Positions 11,147-19,497 of a DNA stretch of 64,000 bases are shown here, in pieces. Positions within the stretch are counted from its first letter, which is position 1. Every line of letters starts with the position of its first letter. A model generated the notes under the pieces. That model saw only the letters and a list, made by a program, of their open reading frames with translations, had not been told where the DNA came from and did not search any database. Origin of the DNA: Thalassotalea marina (GTDB lineage: Bacteria > Pseudomonadota > Gammaproteobacteria > Enterobacterales > Alteromonadaceae); contig NZ_BNCK01000001.1 in the NCBI RefSeq assembly GCF_014656435.1, positions 620,001 through 684,000 of the forward strand, written 5' to 3'. The position numbers were made by a program, and so were the translations under genes.

Positions 11147-11347
11147 GTGCTGTTTTTAATTCCGTTTTTAGCTTTTGTTTCTTCTGCTTTTTTCTATTGT
11201 CAGGCTTTATCTAGTGGTTTAGGGCGTAAACGTTGGGCATTTGCAGGATTTATTTTTGGCCCATTGATTTGGCCAATGTTTTGTATGAATAAAAGAATGA
11301 AAGTAAATCGCCAATTTGGCTTTGATTATTTGCTCTTTAGAGCGTAA
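11147..11347 (+). CDS. Small hypothetical membrane protein
   Basis: A 66-residue ORF with a GTG start about 30 nt downstream of a near-consensus promoter. The N-terminal half is hydrophobic (FLIPFLAFVSSAFFY), a basic loop GRKRW follows, then a second hydrophobic stretch (FAGFIFGPLIWPMF), then a basic tail. Two short transmembrane helices with a cytoplasmic basic end are likely. I do not recognise a named family and assign no function. It stands alone between the fadIJ terminator and the minus-strand repeat gene. No clear Shine-Dalgarno sequence is visible, so the exact start is uncertain. Confidence 0.6.
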   Translation: MLFLIPFLAFVSSAFFYCQALSSGLGRKRWAFAGFIFGPLIWPMFCMNKRMKVNRQFGFDYLLFRA

Positions 11348-11414
11348 GGGTATTTTATCCTTAAAATATAGCCGCTAACTTCCTTGTAGCGAATATAGTC
11401 AAAATGGTGCGCTG

Positions 11415-11516
11415 TTAAAGCGACTTAGCTGCAGGCATTTCTGAAATAGTAATTTTGGCAGCGATAGCGTTTTCTTTTGGACCTATTGCAAACAGTGATT
11501 TTAATAATTTAATCAT
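11415..11516 (-). CDS. 33-residue ORF downstream of the repeat-protein gene
   Basis: An ATG at 11514-11516 opens 33 codons ending in TAA at 11415-11417. A strong ribosome binding site (AGGAGAG, 11521-11527) lies at proper spacing, and the gene begins 17 nt after the stop of the repeat-protein gene, as expected for a second cistron. The peptide starts with a basic/hydrophobic MIKLLKSLFAIG segment, then a mixed AAKITISEMPAAKSL tail. I do not recognise it. The evidence for it being a gene is the ribosome binding site and position; codon conservation would be needed to prove it. Confidence 0.4.
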   Translation of the reverse strand: MIKLLKSLFAIGPKENAIAAKITISEMPAAKSL

Positions 11517-11532: not shown

Positions 11533-11886
11533 TTAGAAGTCTGTTGTTAACGAGTAAGATACACGGATACCTTCGCCACGGTTTTTACCAACACGGATGC
11601 CTTCGCCACGGTTTTTACCAACGCGGATGCCTTCGCCACGGTTTTTACCAACACGGATACCTTCACCACGGTTTTTACCAACACGGATACCTTCACCACG
11701 GTTTTTACCAACACGGATACCTTCACCACGGTTTTTACCAACACGGATACCTTCACCACGGTTCTTGCCAACGCGGATACCTTCACCACGGTTTTTACCT
11801 GCCTGTTCAACAATAAAGTCGTTCAAGTCAGTAACTGGAGCTGGTGAAGTATTGATTGCTAGAGATAAAATAATTGAGCTAAGCAT
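11533..11886 (-). CDS. Tandem-repeat protein (eight copies of GKNRGEGIRV)
   Basis: The 117-residue product has a short hydrophobic N terminus (MLSSIILSLAINTSPAPV), a linker NDFIVEQA up to residue 29, then eight identical copies of the 10-residue unit GKNRGEGIRV (residues 30-109) and the tail SYSLTTDF. The DNA copies differ from each other only at synonymous third positions (for example GGT/GGC, CGT/CGC, AAA/AAG), which shows that this frame is the translated one. GAAGGAA lies upstream of the ATG as a ribosome binding site. The N terminus could be a weak signal peptide or a leader peptide. I do not know the family; a multi-core peptide precursor or a secreted basic repeat protein are both possible. 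Confidence 0.7.
   Translation of the reverse strand: MLSSIILSLAINTSPAPVTDLNDFIVEQAGKNRGEGIRVGKNRGEGIRVGKNRGEGIRVGKNRGEGIRVGKNRGEGIRVGKNRGEGIRVGKNRGEGIRVGKNRGEGIRVSYSLTTDF
11560..11799 (-). repeat. Eight tandem 30-bp direct repeats
   Basis: 240 bp made of eight 30-bp units in exact phase with codons of the repeat-protein gene. Units are nearly identical, with only silent changes. There are no spacers between units, so this is a coding minisatellite and not a CRISPR array. Because the unit length is a multiple of three, other frames on both strands stay open through it. Confidence 0.97.
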
Positions 11887-11974
11887 TTTTTATTATTCCT
11901 TCGATTATTGTTGTAAAATCGATGTTAATAAAGCGATATGCGTGCCAACTTTTTGATCAAAAAATTATCAATTG

Positions 11975-12054
11975 TAGTGCCCTGTTTTTAAAGGGCGGGG
12001 ATATGGGTGTCATTAATATGGCACTAGGTCGTTCAGCTTAATTAACTGAACGAC
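11975..12054. other. Cluster of inverted repeats between sensor gene and repeat gene
   Basis: TAGTGCC (11975-11981) pairs with GGCACTA (12020-12026), while GCCC (11979-11982) can instead pair with GGGC (11993-11996). A further 9-bp stem, GTCGTTCAG (12028-12036) with CTGAACGAC (12046-12054), spans the stop codon of the sensor gene. No T tract follows on the minus strand, so these are not clear terminators. They lie in the leader of the repeat-protein gene or in the 3' end of the sensor transcript. Confidence 0.35.
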
Positions 12055-15000
12055 GTAGATTTGTCGGTGATCTGGTGAGAAAACAAATAACTGCGGAAGT
12101 TGTTTGTTGAGAGAGGCTTACTATATAAATAGCCTTGTAACTGTTCACATCTTAAACCGGACAAAAAGCTCAATTGTTGATTGGTTTCCACACCTTCGGC
12201 TACTACTTGTAGACCTAAGTTATGTGCAATGGTGACAATTGTGGCAACCATATTTCTACCTTGTTCAGAATGTTCAATATCATCAACAAAGGCTTTATCT
12301 ATTTTAAGGGTGTTTAATGGAAACTTCTTAAGGTAAGCTAATGACGAATAACCTGTGCCAAAGTCGTCAAGAGATAGGTGTATACCCATCGCCCTAAGCT
12401 GCAACATAGTGTCAATTGCTTGTTGTGGAGAATTCATTACCGTGCCTTCGGTGATTTCTAATTCCAAATATTTAGAAGGTAAGTTTGCTTCTTTCAATAT
12501 GTCTGTGATCATGCCAACCAAATTAGGTTGAGTAAACTGTACTGCTGACAAGTTGACTGCACATCGGCCATCAAACAAACCTTCATCAATCCACTTTTTA
12601 GTTGCAAAACAGGCTTTTCTTAATACAACTTCACCTATTTCAATAATTTGTCCTGTTTCTTCAGAAACTGGAATAAAAGTCACTGGGCTAATAATACCCT
12701 TCGAAGGGGTTTCAAAACGTACTAGAGCTTCCATACCTGCAATTTTACCCGTAGCAATCTCAATTTTAGGTTGGTAAAACACAGAGAAGTAGTCTTCTTT
12801 TAAACCATGGCGAATTAACCCTTCAATCTGCAAACGTTTAACCGCTTGTTCGTTCATGGTGCCATTAAAGAATTTGTAACGATTGCCACCTTCATTTTTA
12901 GCATGGTACATCGCAGTATCTGCATTTTTTAGCAATTCTTGTGGCGTTGTGCCATCTTCTGGATACAGCACTATACCTATACTTGAATAAAGCACTATTT
13001 CATGATTTTTCAGTTTAAGAGGTTCGGCAATAGTACGTAGTATATGTTTAGCGATTGAAGTAATAGTATGTATATCGTTAGTATTTTCAATAATGATACT
13101 AAATTCATCACCACCCAGACGGTATACGGTATCTTGCTTACGACCAACACTTCTGATGCGCTCCGCTACTTTACATAACAAAACATCACCAACTTCATGG
13201 CCCATGGAGTCATTAACCTTCTTGAAGTTATCGAGATCAAATACTAATAAGGCGTGAGGAATTTTATTTTTTACTAAACGTGATTGGTTTGCTTGAAAGT
13301 AAGAGCGATTTGGTAAGCCGGTCAGTGTATCGGTATTAGCGAGTTTTCTTAGTTCAGCTTCTGTTTCTTTACGTTTGGTTATATCTGAAAATACCCCAAC
13401 AAAATGGCTAATGCTGTTATTTTCATCACGAATGATGTCAATGTTAAGGTCAGTTAAATAACATTCGCCATTTTCGCGTTGGCTTTCAATTTCACCATGC
13501 CAGCTGCCTTTGGTTAACAAATGCTGTTTTACGCTATTGGTAAAACTGTCGTCATATTGTCTGAAATTGAGCGGTGTGCCGATCATTTGACGTTTTGTTT
13601 TACCTGTAATGCGATGGAAGGCTTTGTTTATATCAACGACGTTAAACTGGCGGTCATAAATCACTACAGCATCAGAGATATTTTCAAAACATTTGGCAAA
13701 CAGTTTTAAGCGTTCATCTGCCTTTTTCACTTGGCTGATGTCTTTTAATGTACCTGTCATTCGAATAGGTGCATTTTTCTCATCGCGCTCTACAATTTTG
13801 CCGCGATCAAGTACCCAAATCCACTGGCCATTTTTATCTTTTACTCTATAGGTAGCTTCAAAGTGGGCGGTTTTTTCATCAAAATGGTCTTGCAATGCAT
13901 GGGTGATACGCTTTATATCAGCTTGATTGATATTGGTTTCGTTATCATTGTTATTACCAAGATTGCGTTTACCGTCTTGAGGAAACTCTAGTACTCCCCA
14001 AATATTTGAACGATATATTTTGCCTTTTTTAATATTCCAATCCCACATTTCGTCACCACTGCCCCACAGCGATAACTTTAAGCGCTCTTCACTGGTTTTG
14101 ATTTGCAAGTGATATAGGCGCTTATGACGGAACTGCTGAAGCATGTAAGCAAGGATTAACAAACACACTAAGCTATATATTAAGACTGCGCTGTTGGATA
14201 ACCACCACGGTGGCAAGATTTCGATATTAACTGAGTTAGACTTAAATTCATTGGGGTTATAAATGTCGTAAGCTTGCACTTCAAATAGATAATGACCAGA
14301 GGCCAAATTAGTATAAGTAGCACGTAAATTATGAATGGTGGTTTCTAACCACCTGTCGTCAACACCATGCAATTTATAACGATACGCCACTTGAGTACTA
14401 AGTTTTGAATTTGGGGCGATAAACTCAAAACTAAATGGTGAATGGCTGTATTGAAGGGTGATTTTTGCCAGATCACTAAAGCGTTTAGGAATGGTGAAGT
14501 TATCCGTTTTTTCAGCAGAAATTTCGACTACTTTATTGGCAATTAACAGATCTGTAAAAACGGGAAGAGTAAGTTGTTGTTTAAAATTGAGTAATAAATC
14601 CGGAGAAAAATAATCAAAACCAAGGTTTCCACCAAGGTAAATATTACCAGCCTGATCTATTGTCGAACTTTGGCTTAAGTATTCTATGTTGGTTAAAAAT
14701 TCATGATTGAAATTTCTTAATTTTTGCTGAGGTGTTAGTACTGTTATCGCTTTGTTGGTACTAAACCAAATATTATTTTGTTTATCTACAATAATGTCAT
14801 TGATGAAGTTATTTGCTAATCCGTTATGTTCATTATAAAAATAGGCATGTTTTGAGCCTTTGCTGATAACTAAAGCGCCAGTCCCATCAGTTCCAATAAC
14901 CAAATTGTCGGCAGATTCAATAATAGTTCTGGCTCTGGTCAAATCAAATTTGGTTGAATTTTTAAACGAAAATTCAGTAAACGTATTTTTTTCTATAGAA

Positions 15001-16595
15001 TAATCTAATATTTTTCCTGATTTATTCACCAGCCAAAAGCCATCTTTTGTTTTGGCGCCATTTGTAATGAACTCTTGATCTTGATTAATAACATTGAACT
15101 TTTTAGTGTTTAAATCATAGGTTGATAATTTACCACCAATGTCGATATACCAGATCAGGCCTTGGCTGTGAAAAACTCTTTTATCGTTAGCATAGCTTGA
15201 TTGTTGCTCCCAATTGGCATGAATTATTTGCTCTTGAGTTTCTGTGTTAAATTCAATTAAATCACCACTATCGGAGAACAGAATAAGATGTTCGTCGTTA
15301 TTTAAAATTTGATAAATGCTGGTATTTAAGTCTGCTTCTTTTATAACTTTTTGTGTAATGGGAGAAAATTGAAAAAGTTCATTATCACTTTCAAACCAAA
15401 CTTTGTTTTTGTAATAATGTAAAGCGTCAATGTGATCAATATGTCCTGTAATGTTGCTGTGTATATTTTTAACAACATTTTTTGAGCCTTTAACGGTAAA
15501 TAAACCGTGGAGAGTCCCAATCCAGAGGTTTTTATTTGTATCAACAGTCAAGCTGACAATCCTATCAGCCAAAGTCTCTTCATATTGATGTTTAGCAAAG
15601 GATTCATTAAGTGGATTAACTGAATAAAGGCCTTGTTCTGTTGCGACCCAATAGTGATGTTCTTCTAAAATGCTAACTTCAGTAACCAGTGAATTTTCAA
15701 GAGCAGATCCTTCAAAATTAAATTGGCTTTGTTTTTCATAATTTTTATTAAGTACATGAAGGCCAACGTCGGTGGCGAGCCAATAATAATTATTGTCTGA
15801 CTTAATATCTCTGATCGAATTAATAGGTTTACCGATACTTGCTTCTATACGTTTTTTAAACGAATCTGCAAGTGTTAAGTTTTTATTAAGAATAATAAAA
15901 CCTTGTTCATAGGTGCTTATCCAGTAAAAGCCTTTATCATCTTGAAATATGGTTTTTACCTCAGTTAACGGAATAACTTCGCTATTACTGATTTTCCTTA
16001 TTTTTATAGGGGTAAACGAATCACTTTCACTGTTGTATTTATGAAGGCCATTTTGTGTCGTAACCCAAAGATTATTTGTGTTTTGCTTTTTATCTGTTGA
16101 GTTAAAGCTAGCATATTTATCTTCATATACTGCCCAAATAAGATTATCGGATAAACTTTGATTATTGTCTTCAGACGCTCGGTAGTTAACAAAATTATCT
16201 TGTTCAGCATTATATCGACTTAAGCCATTTTGTGTGCCAATCCAAAGCGTACCATCCTGAGTGATATGCAAGTTTCTAATAAAGTTATCGGCGATAGAAT
16301 TAGGATCGTAAAAGTCATTGCGATAATGAGTAAAGCTTTGTCCATCAAACTTATTTAAGCCATCTTGGGTCGCTACCCAGAGAAAGCCTTCATGGTCTTG
16401 GACAACGTCAAAGACATAGTTTTGTGATAGTCCTTCGGCTGGAGAGAAGTGATCTGCATTGAGGTACTTACTAAAAGAAAAAGCCGGATTGGCGTGTAAG
16501 TTTGAACTGAACAGTAAGATAAGCACCAATAAGGAGGCTTTGAGACGACATAAATGACGAAGACAATTTTTAAACTTAACCAAGACCTGATGCAC
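12042..16595 (-). CDS. Membrane sensor with Reg_prop propeller, PAS, GGDEF and EAL domains
   Basis: A 1517-residue bifunctional cyclic-di-GMP enzyme candidate. Order: signal sequence (1-35); two-component-regulator propeller repeats (about 50-700, e.g. GFLWVATQDGLNKFDG, GTLWIGTQNGLSRYN) in the periplasm; a Y_Y_Y-like domain (about 730-795); one membrane helix near 800-820; two PAS/PAC units (about 835-1080); GGDEF domain with intact GGDEF near 1161 and an upstream inhibitory RxxD site; EAL domain with EALVRFE near 1289, LEITEG, DDFGTGYSSL, AEGVET. Both catalytic motifs look complete, so synthesis and hydrolysis are both possible. It probably senses an extracellular glycan or other ligand through the propeller; the ligand is unknown. 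Confidence 0.93.
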   Translation of the reverse strand: MHQVLVKFKNCLRHLCRLKASLLVLILLFSSNLHANPAFSFSKYLNADHFSPAEGLSQNYVFDVVQDHEGFLWVATQDGLNKFDGQSFTHYRNDFYDPNSIADNFIRNLHITQDGTLWIGTQNGLSRYNAEQDNFVNYRASEDNNQSLSDNLIWAVYEDKYASFNSTDKKQNTNNLWVTTQNGLHKYNSESDSFTPIKIRKISNSEVIPLTEVKTIFQDDKGFYWISTYEQGFIILNKNLTLADSFKKRIEASIGKPINSIRDIKSDNNYYWLATDVGLHVLNKNYEKQSQFNFEGSALENSLVTEVSILEEHHYWVATEQGLYSVNPLNESFAKHQYEETLADRIVSLTVDTNKNLWIGTLHGLFTVKGSKNVVKNIHSNITGHIDHIDALHYYKNKVWFESDNELFQFSPITQKVIKEADLNTSIYQILNNDEHLILFSDSGDLIEFNTETQEQIIHANWEQQSSYANDKRVFHSQGLIWYIDIGGKLSTYDLNTKKFNVINQDQEFITNGAKTKDGFWLVNKSGKILDYSIEKNTFTEFSFKNSTKFDLTRARTIIESADNLVIGTDGTGALVISKGSKHAYFYNEHNGLANNFINDIIVDKQNNIWFSTNKAITVLTPQQKLRNFNHEFLTNIEYLSQSSTIDQAGNIYLGGNLGFDYFSPDLLLNFKQQLTLPVFTDLLIANKVVEISAEKTDNFTIPKRFSDLAKITLQYSHSPFSFEFIAPNSKLSTQVAYRYKLHGVDDRWLETTIHNLRATYTNLASGHYLFEVQAYDIYNPNEFKSNSVNIEILPPWWLSNSAVLIYSLVCLLILAYMLQQFRHKRLYHLQIKTSEERLKLSLWGSGDEMWDWNIKKGKIYRSNIWGVLEFPQDGKRNLGNNNDNETNINQADIKRITHALQDHFDEKTAHFEATYRVKDKNGQWIWVLDRGKIVERDEKNAPIRMTGTLKDISQVKKADERLKLFAKCFENISDAVVIYDRQFNVVDINKAFHRITGKTKRQMIGTPLNFRQYDDSFTNSVKQHLLTKGSWHGEIESQRENGECYLTDLNIDIIRDENNSISHFVGVFSDITKRKETEAELRKLANTDTLTGLPNRSYFQANQSRLVKNKIPHALLVFDLDNFKKVNDSMGHEVGDVLLCKVAERIRSVGRKQDTVYRLGGDEFSIIIENTNDIHTITSIAKHILRTIAEPLKLKNHEIVLYSSIGIVLYPEDGTTPQELLKNADTAMYHAKNEGGNRYKFFNGTMNEQAVKRLQIEGLIRHGLKEDYFSVFYQPKIEIATGKIAGMEALVRFETPSKGIISPVTFIPVSEETGQIIEIGEVVLRKACFATKKWIDEGLFDGRCAVNLSAVQFTQPNLVGMITDILKEANLPSKYLELEITEGTVMNSPQQAIDTMLQLRAMGIHLSLDDFGTGYSSLAYLKKFPLNTLKIDKAFVDDIEHSEQGRNMVATIVTIAHNLGLQVVAEGVETNQQLSFLSGLRCEQLQGYLYSKPLSTNNFRSYLFSHQITDKSTSFS

Positions 16596-16740: not shown

Positions 16741-19497
16741 CTAATATTTTATTGAGCAATTTTTTAAAATATCGTGAACTTTTTCAAGGCTAGTGTCTTG
16801 TTTTTGTTTGATAGACATCAAACAAACTCTATCTTTGACACCTGTCATATTACTAAGCTTTTCAAATAAAAAGGCTCGAATATCTTGTTTATTAATTTGT
16901 TTGATTATCTCAATTAATTTAGCTTTTTGATCAAAAGTATATTCTTCATTACAAATACAGCTCCAAAACCGCTGACTTTTTATTCGTAAGCTGGTGTCTT
17001 TTTCTTGTAACTGACTGGCAAGGCCATGTTGTAGGTGTTGCCAATCCTGATCACTCATGGCATCCGCTAATAAATGGCTTTCATCGATAAATTCACAAAT
17101 GGCGTTAACTAATATCGAGGCGTCAAATTTTGGTGATTGAATGTAAAAAGCAATGCCAGGATAGCGGTTAATGGGAACAAAACCCACGCCAACCAAATAA
17201 CCATATTGACGTTCAGTTCGCATTTGATGGAAAAATTGCGGAGAAAGAATCTGGCTAACAATCATAGTAAGTGCAACTTGTTGCAGGTTTTTTTCGGCGA
17301 TGGGGTAATACAGCACTGCAGCGTGGTCATGATGCGGTAAAACCAATGGGTAGTCTAAACTGCCTTTTCCACTGATATCTAACATATAGCTTTGTTCTTT
17401 AAAGCAGCTCTTTGCATGGTTTGCAAAGGTTTGAGTGATCACAGATTCAATGTCGCGCGCGTGTTTAATTTGCCAATTACCGTGAATTAATACCTCAATA
17501 TTAACTTGTTCAAATATTCTTTTACTGTGTTCGATAAATTCTTTGAAGCTAACAGGCTCTAGCGCTTCTGTTAGCTCTTCTGGGCTAGGGTTTTTAGGTT
17601 GTAAATTAGAACTCAATGCAGAAAACAACTGAGATATTGACTTACTTGTATCTGTGTTTCGCCAATGATTAATTAGTTGTCGCTTTAACAAGGTAAATTT
17701 ATTTTCATTAAACTGGCAACTCGTTAGTTCACTTAAAAGTTGCTTTAACAGCAGATTTTGTTTCGTACTAATGCCTGATAATTGCAATGTAAGCCCACCT
17801 TGATGGGCGTACAAGTGATAGTGAATACCTGCTAACTCGGCATCGTAATGTTGTTCAATAACCGCATCAGTGTATAAGTCGACAAAGAGCCGAGTCATGG
17901 CAATATGTTGACTTGAAATTAAAGTATAAGGGCTGTCTATACCAATATATATATAACCTTTAGGTACTTTAAAAGTTTGGTCTTGTTTATACCAAACCTT
18001 AATGCCATCTTTTTCAGTGATACATTGTGGTATCGCACATACTGCTTGTTCATCAGCGTAAACCTTAGGCGAAGAAACAATATATTGATTAGGCTCTGGT
18101 AAGGATAAAGAAAACTCTTTATCACTAACTTGCCATTGCTTTAATAAAGCGGGCTCTATCGGGGAAACTCTGTAAGGAACCCGATACCAACGGGTTGTAA
18201 GGTCACCGTCAACCTTTTTGCTTACATGAGTATAGCGAAAGTTCGCAGGCGAAAAATAACTTAAAAGTTCGTTAAGCAGATCCGCTGAAATATCTTCCAT
18301 CATGTAATCGCCATAAATATAGTGCTGCTCATCGTAGTGCTGCATATTGATGACAAGTTGGCAAACAGAATCTAATGGCTTTATCTTTTCATGATAATTG
18401 AAGGACAATTCAGCAATAGCCTTTTTTTCTTGAAAGTAATGTTTGGCTAACGGCTGTTTTTTTAACAAGCCAATGTAGCAAAAAACAATACTGATAATTT
18501 CATTGATATGTTGCTCACCTGATTCGGTGAGGCGAATGCTGATATTAAAATCTTTAAAGTTATAACCGTTTATCCCTGATCCCGCAGTGAGTGCCAATGC
18601 CCATTGCTTTTGTTTTAAAAGCGATAAAATACTGCCTTTTCCCTCATGACCAATCAAGTATGCTAACAAAGATTCTGGTTTTTGCTGATAGTATTTATCT
18701 AAACTTGGTAGAGCAAAATTAATAATTAATTGGCGATCATTTTTTACCGGTTGAACGTGAATAGCAACTCCTTGTTGTTCTGGTAAATAAAGCGGGGTAT
18801 CCGGTAATTCATAGGTTTTTGGCGTGCCAGAAACAGCAGAAAAGTATTGAGTCGCTAAATCATTTAGCTCAGCTAGAGACTGAGGACCTTCCAGTACCAA
18901 GGTCATTGACGAAGCAACATAATGTTGTTGGTAAAACGTTTCAACTTCATCACGCAGTGAGTGATTGGGAAGATCAGCTAATGTTTCTGTATTACCAACA
19001 GAGAATTTAGAAAATGGATGTTGCGGGTTTATGGTTTCTTTGTGAACATCGTACAGACGTCTGATCTCGTCTTTTAATTTGAGCTTAAATTCAGCATCAA
19101 TGTTTTTTCGTTCTTTGTTGACAAATTCTTCTGATAGCAATGGTGCGATAAAAAACTGGCTGAAACGGTCTATCGCTTGTTCAAAATGACTAAAATGAAT
19201 GTCGAAGAAAAAACAGGTATGTTCGGTAGCGGTCCAGGCATTGTTTGCGCCACCATATTGACTAATAAACTTTTGGTATTCGCTACCATCTGGGAACTTT
19301 TCCGTGCCCAAAAAAAGCATGTGCTCTAGGAAGTGAGCTAAACCTTGACGATGACAAGGATCGCTAAAGTGACCAACATTTACAGCGAGAGCAGCGGCTG
19401 ACTTTTGTGTTTCGCCATTATGTACCAATAGCACCTTAAGTCCGTTCTGTAACTTTATGTTTTGGTACTGCTTGGTGTCATTGGGGCTTTGTATCAC
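16741..19497 (-). CDS. M16 family zinc metalloprotease (insulinase/pitrilysin type)
   Basis: The 918-residue protein has the inverted zinc motif HFLEH (HxxEH) in GLAHFLEHMLFLGTEKFP at about residues 54-58 and the downstream Glu ligand in the NIDAEFKLKLKDE segment. Its length and order of N-terminal catalytic and C-terminal M16C-like domains match insulin-degrading enzyme and E. coli protease III. Unlike periplasmic protease III it begins directly with the M16 fold (YQNIKLQNGLKVLLV) and has no signal peptide, so a cytoplasmic peptide-degrading role is likely. It uses a GTG start with GAGGGAGCGG upstream. It lies 145 bp upstream of the sensor gene on the same strand but is probably a separate unit. 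Confidence 0.92.
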   Translation of the reverse strand: MIQSPNDTKQYQNIKLQNGLKVLLVHNGETQKSAAALAVNVGHFSDPCHRQGLAHFLEHMLFLGTEKFPDGSEYQKFISQYGGANNAWTATEHTCFFFDIHFSHFEQAIDRFSQFFIAPLLSEEFVNKERKNIDAEFKLKLKDEIRRLYDVHKETINPQHPFSKFSVGNTETLADLPNHSLRDEVETFYQQHYVASSMTLVLEGPQSLAELNDLATQYFSAVSGTPKTYELPDTPLYLPEQQGVAIHVQPVKNDRQLIINFALPSLDKYYQQKPESLLAYLIGHEGKGSILSLLKQKQWALALTAGSGINGYNFKDFNISIRLTESGEQHINEIISIVFCYIGLLKKQPLAKHYFQEKKAIAELSFNYHEKIKPLDSVCQLVINMQHYDEQHYIYGDYMMEDISADLLNELLSYFSPANFRYTHVSKKVDGDLTTRWYRVPYRVSPIEPALLKQWQVSDKEFSLSLPEPNQYIVSSPKVYADEQAVCAIPQCITEKDGIKVWYKQDQTFKVPKGYIYIGIDSPYTLISSQHIAMTRLFVDLYTDAVIEQHYDAELAGIHYHLYAHQGGLTLQLSGISTKQNLLLKQLLSELTSCQFNENKFTLLKRQLINHWRNTDTSKSISQLFSALSSNLQPKNPSPEELTEALEPVSFKEFIEHSKRIFEQVNIEVLIHGNWQIKHARDIESVITQTFANHAKSCFKEQSYMLDISGKGSLDYPLVLPHHDHAAVLYYPIAEKNLQQVALTMIVSQILSPQFFHQMRTERQYGYLVGVGFVPINRYPGIAFYIQSPKFDASILVNAICEFIDESHLLADAMSDQDWQHLQHGLASQLQEKDTSLRIKSQRFWSCICNEEYTFDQKAKLIEIIKQINKQDIRAFLFEKLSNMTGVKDRVCLMSIKQKQDTSLEKVHDILKNCSIKY

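What the first reader, a model, noticed from the sequence alone, without database searches (positions are those of the whole stretch)
11533..11886. Gene for a protein of eight perfect decapeptide repeats
Two thirds of the 117-residue product is GKNRGEGIRV repeated eight times without one amino acid change, although the DNA copies carry several silent changes. Perfect protein identity with silent DNA differences points to selection on the peptide (or gene conversion with purifying selection). The layout, short hydrophobic or leader-like N terminus, linker, identical units and short tail, resembles multi-core precursor peptides or secreted repeat proteins. No processing enzyme is adjacent. I cannot name a family for it.
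Basis: partly seen in the sequence, partly recalled or inferred. Interest (0 to 1): 0.72.

Follow-up and report, generated by a model that had tools for sequence, protein, structure and literature searches.

The report
Repeat-peptide gene paired with propeller sensor
The gene makes an apparently exported protein that carries the same short peptide eight times; its relatives carry species-specific versions, and the gene comes and goes together with the outer sensing domain of the neighbouring protein that controls the second messenger c-di-GMP, so it looks like an unrecognised peptide-signal and receptor pair.

Summary
In detail: eight exact GKNRGEGIRV copies, six DNA variants, no amino-acid difference. 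It belongs to a large gene family that no library searched here names. Relatives share a hydrophobic, signal-peptide-like start, but the repeated unit differs between species (56 different units in 63 genes) while staying identical within a gene (58 of 63). 77 of 82 upstream regions have a sigma-54 promoter. A second small gene follows in many lineages.

The key result lies outside the given coordinates. The gene upstream encodes a predicted periplasmic beta-propeller sensor joined to GGDEF and EAL (c-di-GMP) domains. In the window's family, 36 of 36 further loci with a full-length sensor hold the peptide gene; 0 of 16 with a propeller-less sensor and 0 of 18 without a sensor do. Three genomes whose peptide operon has moved keep the sensor elsewhere. 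The propeller is the fastest-evolving domain measured, and its divergence tracks that of the unit. In other families of the order 26 of 38 full-length sensors have such a gene beside them; 12 do not.

Best reading: a species-specific peptide ligand, made as a multi-copy precursor, for a c-di-GMP receptor. Export, binding, processing and cell-to-cell action are inferred, not shown.

The parts
11533..11886 (-). gene 1: repeat-peptide precursor, 117 aa
11800..11886 (-). hydrophobic, signal-peptide-like N terminus and linker, residues 1-29
   Evidence: N terminus conserved in relatives; export is inferred, no signal-peptide program was available
11560..11799 (-). eight units GKNRGEGIRV
11415..11516 (-). 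gene 2: 33-residue protein MIKLLKSLFAIGPKENAIAAKITISEMPAAKSL
   Evidence: conserved directly downstream of gene 1; most relatives end in WW plus one residue, this copy does not
11933..11948 (-). sigma-54 type promoter TTGGCACGCATATCGC, first base of TGGCA 61 bases before the start codon
   Evidence: 77 of 82 upstream regions, 0.25 expected in shuffles
12007..12024 (.). palindrome GTGCC-N8-GACAC, candidate enhancer-binding site
   Evidence: at most 2 mismatches to GTGTC-N8-GACAC in 28 of 82, about 6.5 expected
11373..11391 (-). hairpin CGCTACAAGGAAGTTAGCG after gene 2, resembling a CsrA site (consensus recalled)
   Evidence: 36 of 73 loci, 0 in shuffles
12042..16595 (-). sensor: Reg_prop, Y_Y_Y, PAS, GGDEF and EAL domains, 1517 aa, proposed receptor
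   Evidence: Pfam, model, fold match, co-occurrence
14421..16463 (-). predicted periplasmic propeller region of the sensor, aa 45-725

Best explanation
Gene 1 is a sigma-54-driven precursor. Its hydrophobic N terminus sends it to the periplasm, and the repeated basic unit (6-11 residues; eight copies here, one copy in some genera) is the ligand of the periplasmic propeller domain of the sensor encoded just upstream. Bound peptide changes the GGDEF/EAL output and so the c-di-GMP level. The units are probably freed by a peptidase, since they end the protein exactly in most relatives and one copy suffices in several genera; many copies raise the dose. Peptide and propeller diversify together, so species tend to have their own pair, as in known peptide pheromones. 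Shown: peptide-level constraint, promoter, co-occurrence with the propeller, correlated divergence. Inferred: export, processing, direct binding, the effect on c-di-GMP, any action between cells, and the role of gene 2.
For: Unit copies identical in 58 of 63 genes, all 58 with silent DNA differences. Sigma-54 promoter in 77 of 82 upstream regions. Sensor adjacent in 66 of 69 gene-2 loci (65 by script, plus G284), and a full-length sensor elsewhere in the other three genomes. Further loci of the family: full-length sensor 36 of 36 with the gene, propeller-less 0 of 16, no sensor 0 of 18 real. Truncation needs at least three changes on the tree. Outside the family 26 of 38 full-length sensors have such a gene. 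Unit divergence tracks propeller divergence, not M16 or PAS divergence. Hypervariable propeller patch. The periplasmic part resembles ligand-binding sensors such as BT4663.
Against: 13 of 42 full-length sensors of the last set have no such gene next to them (8 of genus f188/g327, plus G688, G663, G696, G675, and G002 in the window's own family). The correlation is not significant in two small genus sets. Charge complementarity is weak: rho -0.21, p 0.047 over 94, not significant for the 58 tandem genes. Genes of f195 have single, acidic C-terminal ends, and only 11 of 37 carriers of the Alteromonas-like set have the hydrophobic-K/R-hydrophobic end (3.5 in shuffles), so no one motif fits the whole family. 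The proteins of this fold best known bind carbohydrates (recalled; the PDB title names heparin). No protease was found for the units. Co-loss of adjacent genes can be one deletion.
Confidence: 0.6

Rival explanations
1. Unprocessed partner: the whole repeat protein stays in the periplasm as a multivalent subunit, tether or inhibitor of the propeller sensor, without release of free peptides.
For: The same co-occurrence data. Arrays without spacers have no obvious cut site (14 of 63 genes). The single-sequence model of gene 1 shows a regular series of short strands at pLDDT about 70 in the repeats, 64 overall, so a folded repeat is not excluded.
Against: Single-unit genes work in several genera; spacers of variable sequence are tolerated between units; most proteins end exactly with a unit.
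Confidence: 0.2
2. Secreted structural or matrix protein (adhesin, surface fibre) whose expression or export is tied to the c-di-GMP sensor.
For: Very long arrays in f187 (26-29 copies in G759, G830, G858); c-di-GMP usually controls matrix proteins (general knowledge).
Against: Single-unit genes of about 50 residues; species-specific units; peptide loss goes with loss of the sensor's input domain only, the output domains being kept.
Confidence: 0.1
3. Multi-core RiPP or antimicrobial peptide precursor.
For: Leader plus repeated short cationic cores.
Against: No modification enzyme or exporter in the conserved neighbourhood; no RiPP family match above cut-off; does not explain the link to the propeller.
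Confidence: 0.06
4. Neutral tandem repeat kept uniform by slippage or gene conversion.
For: Copy number varies and units are homogeneous within genes.
Against: Homogenisation removes silent and changing differences alike; pairwise differences in units are 2157 silent to 20 changing, while spacers of the same genes show 93 silent to 92 changing variants by a column count.
Confidence: 0.02

Closest known systems
Peptide pheromone and receptor pairs of Gram-positive bacteria (ComX/ComP, Agr; recalled)
   Same: Species-specific peptide encoded next to a fast-evolving membrane receptor, the two diversifying together.
   Different: Here a Gram-negative order, a beta-propeller receptor with GGDEF/EAL output instead of a histidine kinase, tandem identical units, sigma-54 control; no evidence yet for signalling between cells.
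Yeast alpha-factor precursor (recalled)
   Same: Leader, then identical peptide copies separated by spacers that vary more than the peptides.
   Different: Unrelated sequence; no processing sites or enzymes identified here.
Hybrid two-component sensors such as BT4663 (PDB 4a2m, 4a2l)
   Same: Reg_prop propellers plus Y_Y_Y as periplasmic input domain; best fold match.
   Different: Output is GGDEF/EAL; proposed ligand is an encoded peptide, whereas BT4663 is described as a heparin and heparan sulphate sensor in its PDB title.
Multi-core RiPP precursors (recalled)
   Same: Leader plus repeated short cores.
   Different: No maturation enzyme nearby; cores of one gene are identical; linked to a sensor domain.

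Membership tests
RiPP with multi-core precursor | Modification or maturation enzyme encoded nearby | tested here: not met
   In 31 aligned loci the shared neighbours are M16 peptidase, sensor, fadJ, fadI, MoxR, DUF58; none is a RiPP modification enzyme. An enzyme encoded elsewhere was not sought.
RiPP with multi-core precursor | Match to a known precursor family | tested here: not met
   No match above curated cut-off to a precursor family in NCBIfam or Pfam.
Peptide pheromone system | Peptide gene co-inherited with its receptor gene | tested here: met
   within the family; 13 exceptions in the last set.
Peptide pheromone system | Peptide and receptor input domain co-diversify | tested here: met
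   Partial r 0.30, p 0.001 over 58 species; 0.40, p 0.002 in genus g8; not significant in two small sets. Species are related, so p-values are optimistic.
Peptide pheromone system | Peptide is released and acts on other cells | not testable with these tools
   Needs peptidomics and cross-feeding.
Reg_prop/Y_Y_Y periplasmic sensor (BT4663-like) | Domain composition and periplasmic placement | tested here: met
   Pfam; helices 2-30 and 801-829 flank the beta part; Foldseek E 1.4e-42, TM about 0.5.
Reg_prop/Y_Y_Y periplasmic sensor (BT4663-like) | Carbohydrate ligand | not tested
   Ligand unknown here; an encoded peptide is proposed.
Sigma-54 dependent gene | GG/GC elements at -24/-12 spacing upstream | tested here: met
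   77 of 82, 0.25 in shuffles, 1 on the other strand.

The most novel reading that the evidence does not exclude
A previously unknown class of Gram-negative peptide pheromone: species-specific short peptides, cut from tandem precursors under sigma-54 control, are read by hypervariable periplasmic beta-propeller receptors that directly set c-di-GMP, across several families of one gammaproteobacterial order.
Probability: 0.4. Interest if true: 0.95.

Novelty: categorically new. Interest (0 to 1): 0.88.

Why it matters
The input signals of most GGDEF/EAL proteins are unknown, and genetically encoded peptide signals are little known in Gram-negative bacteria (both recalled). Here sequence alone names a candidate ligand, spelled out in each genome, for one widespread c-di-GMP sensor, so it can be tested with a synthetic peptide and one purified domain. 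The family is also a natural example of a ligand and a receptor patch changing together, with natural losses of the input domain as built-in controls.

Tried and rejected
Family look-ups of gene 1, gene 2 and relatives in Pfam, NCBIfam and PHROGs. Matches above cut-off to long repetitive members (DUF4097 2e-9, DUF7239 3e-10 and Leader_Erm 2e-6; POMP_repeat) fall on repeats of single members and are read as repeat-driven. No tRNA and no Rfam family at gathering score in the window.

RNA or DNA repeat as the functional thing (CsrA sponge): rejected, since the constraint is on amino acids and the window's repeat array holds no GGA on its strand. Enhancer-site regulon: in 12 genomes the strict palindrome lay only at the peptide operon in G007, G239, G263 and G095, but elsewhere or nowhere in others, and the reversed control pattern was about as frequent, so no regulon could be named. 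Charge complementarity: weak. Gene 1 model: low confidence.

Limits of the counts. The unit of each gene was chosen by eye, which favours invariance. therefore accepted copies with up to about a third mismatches; the 14 arrays without spacers leave little room for choice. One search counted exact copies only, so its zero changes in units are by construction; only its spacer counts are used. Of 73 gene-2 genomes, 63 entered the unit counts; left out were six single-unit genes (G013, G061, G095, G124, G234, G284) and four loci cut by contig ends (G003, G046, G076, G248). Second set: 78 loci; less G193 (already in the first set) and seven too short or cut (G008, G057, G288, G106, G038, G080, G136) leaves 70. 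About 14 of the 36 positive loci were seen before the rule was framed, the rest after. One no-sensor locus, G020, met the promoter-plus-ORF rule twice; I call it false because it has no sensor or M16 gene and one hit overlaps a transporter gene. Peptide genes moved elsewhere were sought only. Third set: 47 loci; G764 (sensor cut by the contig end, gene present) is not counted; 42 full-length (29 with the gene) and 4 propeller-less (none). Seven of the 29 were recognised only by reading: longer than my limit (G759, G830, G858), an overlapping frame picked by the script (G673, G802), GT for GC at -12 (G733, G749). Of the 13 misses I read the downstream DNA of seven (G688, G663, G696, G675, G002, G728, G666; G663 has a small ORF with a hydrophobic start that I did not count); for the other six, all f188, I saw only the small-ORF list.

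Full report
THE OBSERVATION. The minus-strand ORF 11533-11886 encodes 117 residues with GKNRGEGIRV eight times in a row; the array scores 415 in Tandem Repeats Finder. The eight DNA copies form six variants, all differences silent. One match was found in the window's own genome, the gene itself.

A FAMILY WITH A FIXED FRAME AND A CHANGING UNIT. A search of 295 genomes of the same family found matches in 95 at E up to 1, many of the weak ones chance. The true relatives have a conserved hydrophobic start (MLSSLILSLAMS..P or similar) and then a tandem unit that differs between species: GTRKDQVRI, GKSKAEVRI, GRKVSTVRI, ARRNVRM, ASNKIRI and so on. I tallied 63 genes with two or more copies: 56 different units, net charge +1 to +5 with mean +2.7, R or K next to last in 63 of 63, and I, L, V or M last in 63 of 63. 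A few related species share a unit. Within a gene the units are identical in amino acids in 58 of 63, and all 58 carry silent DNA differences; summed over pairs of copies there are 2157 silent against 20 changing codon differences (pairs are not independent). Spacers, where present, show 93 silent to 92 changing variants. Slippage or conversion alone cannot do this; the peptide itself is selected.

A SECOND GENE AND THE CONTROL REGION. Right after gene 1 lies gene 2, about 34 residues, consensus MIKLIKxLFxxxxKENxIAAxIEIKEMPAxxWWx; 73 of 295 genomes have it at E up to 0.1. The window's copy lacks the WW. Upstream of gene 1 is a sigma-54 promoter: TGGCA-N8-GC in 77 of 82 upstream regions, against 0.25 in shuffles and 1 on the other strand; the five misses, four of g14 and G032, match 7 or 8 of 10 consensus bases. 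A palindrome GTGTC-N8-GACAC with at most two mismatches lies further upstream in 28 of 82 (about 6.5 expected; 15 against 0.7 at one mismatch or less), mostly 125-250 bases before the start codon. A hairpin resembling a CsrA site (consensus recalled) follows gene 2 in 36 of 73 loci.

THE NEIGHBOUR. In 30 of 31 loci compared the gene upstream is the same protein of about 1500 residues (the exception is G120): Reg_prop repeats, Y_Y_Y, PAS, GGDEF and EAL by Pfam. The motifs GGDEF and EAL are present in the window's copy. A model of residues 1-830 (nine sequences, pLDDT 74.8, pTM 0.48) shows helices 2-30 and 801-829 around an all-beta part; the best PDB matches are the periplasmic domains of BT4663 (E 1.4e-42), BT3049 and BT4673. 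The order M16 peptidase, sensor, gene 1, gene 2, fadJ, fadI is kept in 29 or 30 of 31, so the locus is mostly inherited vertically.

CO-OCCURRENCE. Of 69 gene-2 loci with at least 600 bases upstream, 66 have the sensor adjacent (65 by script, plus G284, whose gene 1 my script had misread). In G280, G291 and G120 the operon sits elsewhere, yet a full-length sensor (1619-1705 bits) is found in each genome, whereas ten peptide-less genomes have only paralogues of 371-496 bits. I then read the place 3' of fadJ in further genomes of the family. With a full-length sensor 36 of 36 have a sigma-54-driven small gene next to it, mostly with the start MLKAYAVALVL..APVA or similar and usually one C-terminal peptide (for example WKPGSVRI, IKVGSVRF), but two copies in G019, three in G067 and G092, five in G031. 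With a sensor lacking the propeller (747-895 residues) 0 of 16 have it. With no sensor at the locus 0 of 18 have it, after setting aside one false hit, G020. So the rule 'promoter plus ORF' gave a false hit at 1 of 34 loci. On a tree of 119 output domains the truncated forms need at least three changes of state (quick method, long branches, gains not excluded); G282, inside a genus of carriers, is the clearest case.

BEYOND THE FAMILY. A search of 217 genomes of the order with the whole sensor gave 65 with E up to 1e-180. I examined 47 of these loci, five of them in the window's family. Of 38 full-length sensors outside it, 26 have such a gene directly downstream: f187 12 of 13, f195 5 of 5, f196 5 of 5, f200 4 of 4, f188 0 of 8, and G663, G696 and G675 none. 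Within the family G023, G100 and G129 have it and G002 does not. Propeller-less sensors: 0 of 4. Many f187 products are large arrays: 26 copies of GLPNIK(F/L) in G759, 29 of GIPNVKF in G830, 28 of GLPNVKF in G858. Repeated units of f187 and f200 keep a hydrophobic, then K or R, then hydrophobic or aromatic pattern (PNIKV, PHIRY, PNVRW, IPIRF, VIIRY), as do 51 of 63 units of the first set at their very end (1.2 in shuffles); but in the Alteromonas-like set only 11 of 37 do (3.5 in shuffles), and the five f195 genes end in acidic single peptides. Gene 2 with its WW end is present in the carriers of f187 (12 of 12), f195 (5 of 5) and f200 (4 of 4) and was not found in f196 or in the Alteromonas-like loci. 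Gene-2 profile searches alone had seemed to confine the system to one family; that is a limit of the profile.

CO-DIVERGENCE. Over 58 species the propeller differs on average at 64% of sites, PAS 32%, output domains 19%, M16 43%. Unit distance correlates with propeller distance after control for the other three (partial r 0.30, p 0.001); M16 (0.06, p 0.20) and PAS (0.03, p 0.33) do not. In genus g8, 14 species and 66 pairs: 0.40, p 0.002. In two small sets, 21 pairs each, it is not significant (0.06 and 0.08). In g8 the sensor's aa 401-700 differ at 40-65% of sites against 1-16% from aa 851 on. Related species are not independent, so the p-values are optimistic.

READING. The simplest account is that the encoded peptide is the ligand, or at least an obligate partner, of the propeller, and that both diverge together. 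One copy is enough in many genera, which speaks against a purely structural repeat. Exact C-terminal ends in 48 of 63 suggest that the unit's own C terminus matters and that internal units are cut free, but no peptidase is assigned; the syntenic M16 peptidase is an unproven candidate. Why the window's protein has an extra tail is open. Whether the peptide acts within one periplasm or between cells cannot be decided from sequence; species-specific units favour the latter. I mark it categorically new because neither gene matches a named family and I know of no encoded peptide ligand for a propeller c-di-GMP enzyme; if it proves to be a pheromone it would be a new class of a known general kind.

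PRIOR WORK. Ten full-text searches of the open PMC set were made. The unit, a gene 2 motif and the alternative leader gave no paper; searches gave none; the listings showed no title or abstract start describing such a system. Subscription papers are not held, so prior description cannot be excluded.

Noticed in passing
11147-11347 (+): A convergent 66-residue ORF with hydrophobic segments is conserved between the peptide operon and fadJ in many relatives, also in several that lack the peptide genes; no Pfam or NCBIfam match.
   Followed up: partly
16741-19497 (-): An M16 (insulinase-type) peptidase without an obvious signal peptide lies upstream of the sensor in 30 of 31 loci; it could in principle handle the peptides, but it is also present where peptide and sensor are gone.
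   Followed up: partly
11373-11391 (-): Conserved hairpin with loop ACAAGGA after gene 2 in 36 of 73 loci; looks like a CsrA/RsmA site (recalled consensus), which would add post-transcriptional control.
   Followed up: partly
L028 and L048 (G193), L336 (G830): Gene 2 occurs twice in tandem in these genomes.
   Followed up: no
G162 loci L255, L266, L267, L268: The palindrome GTGTCGGCTACGCGACAC occurs four times in one genome, with related forms in G227, G025 and G124; possibly an unrelated repeat or binding site.
   Followed up: no
2115-2359: Short imperfect 18-base tandem repeats elsewhere in the window.
   Followed up: no
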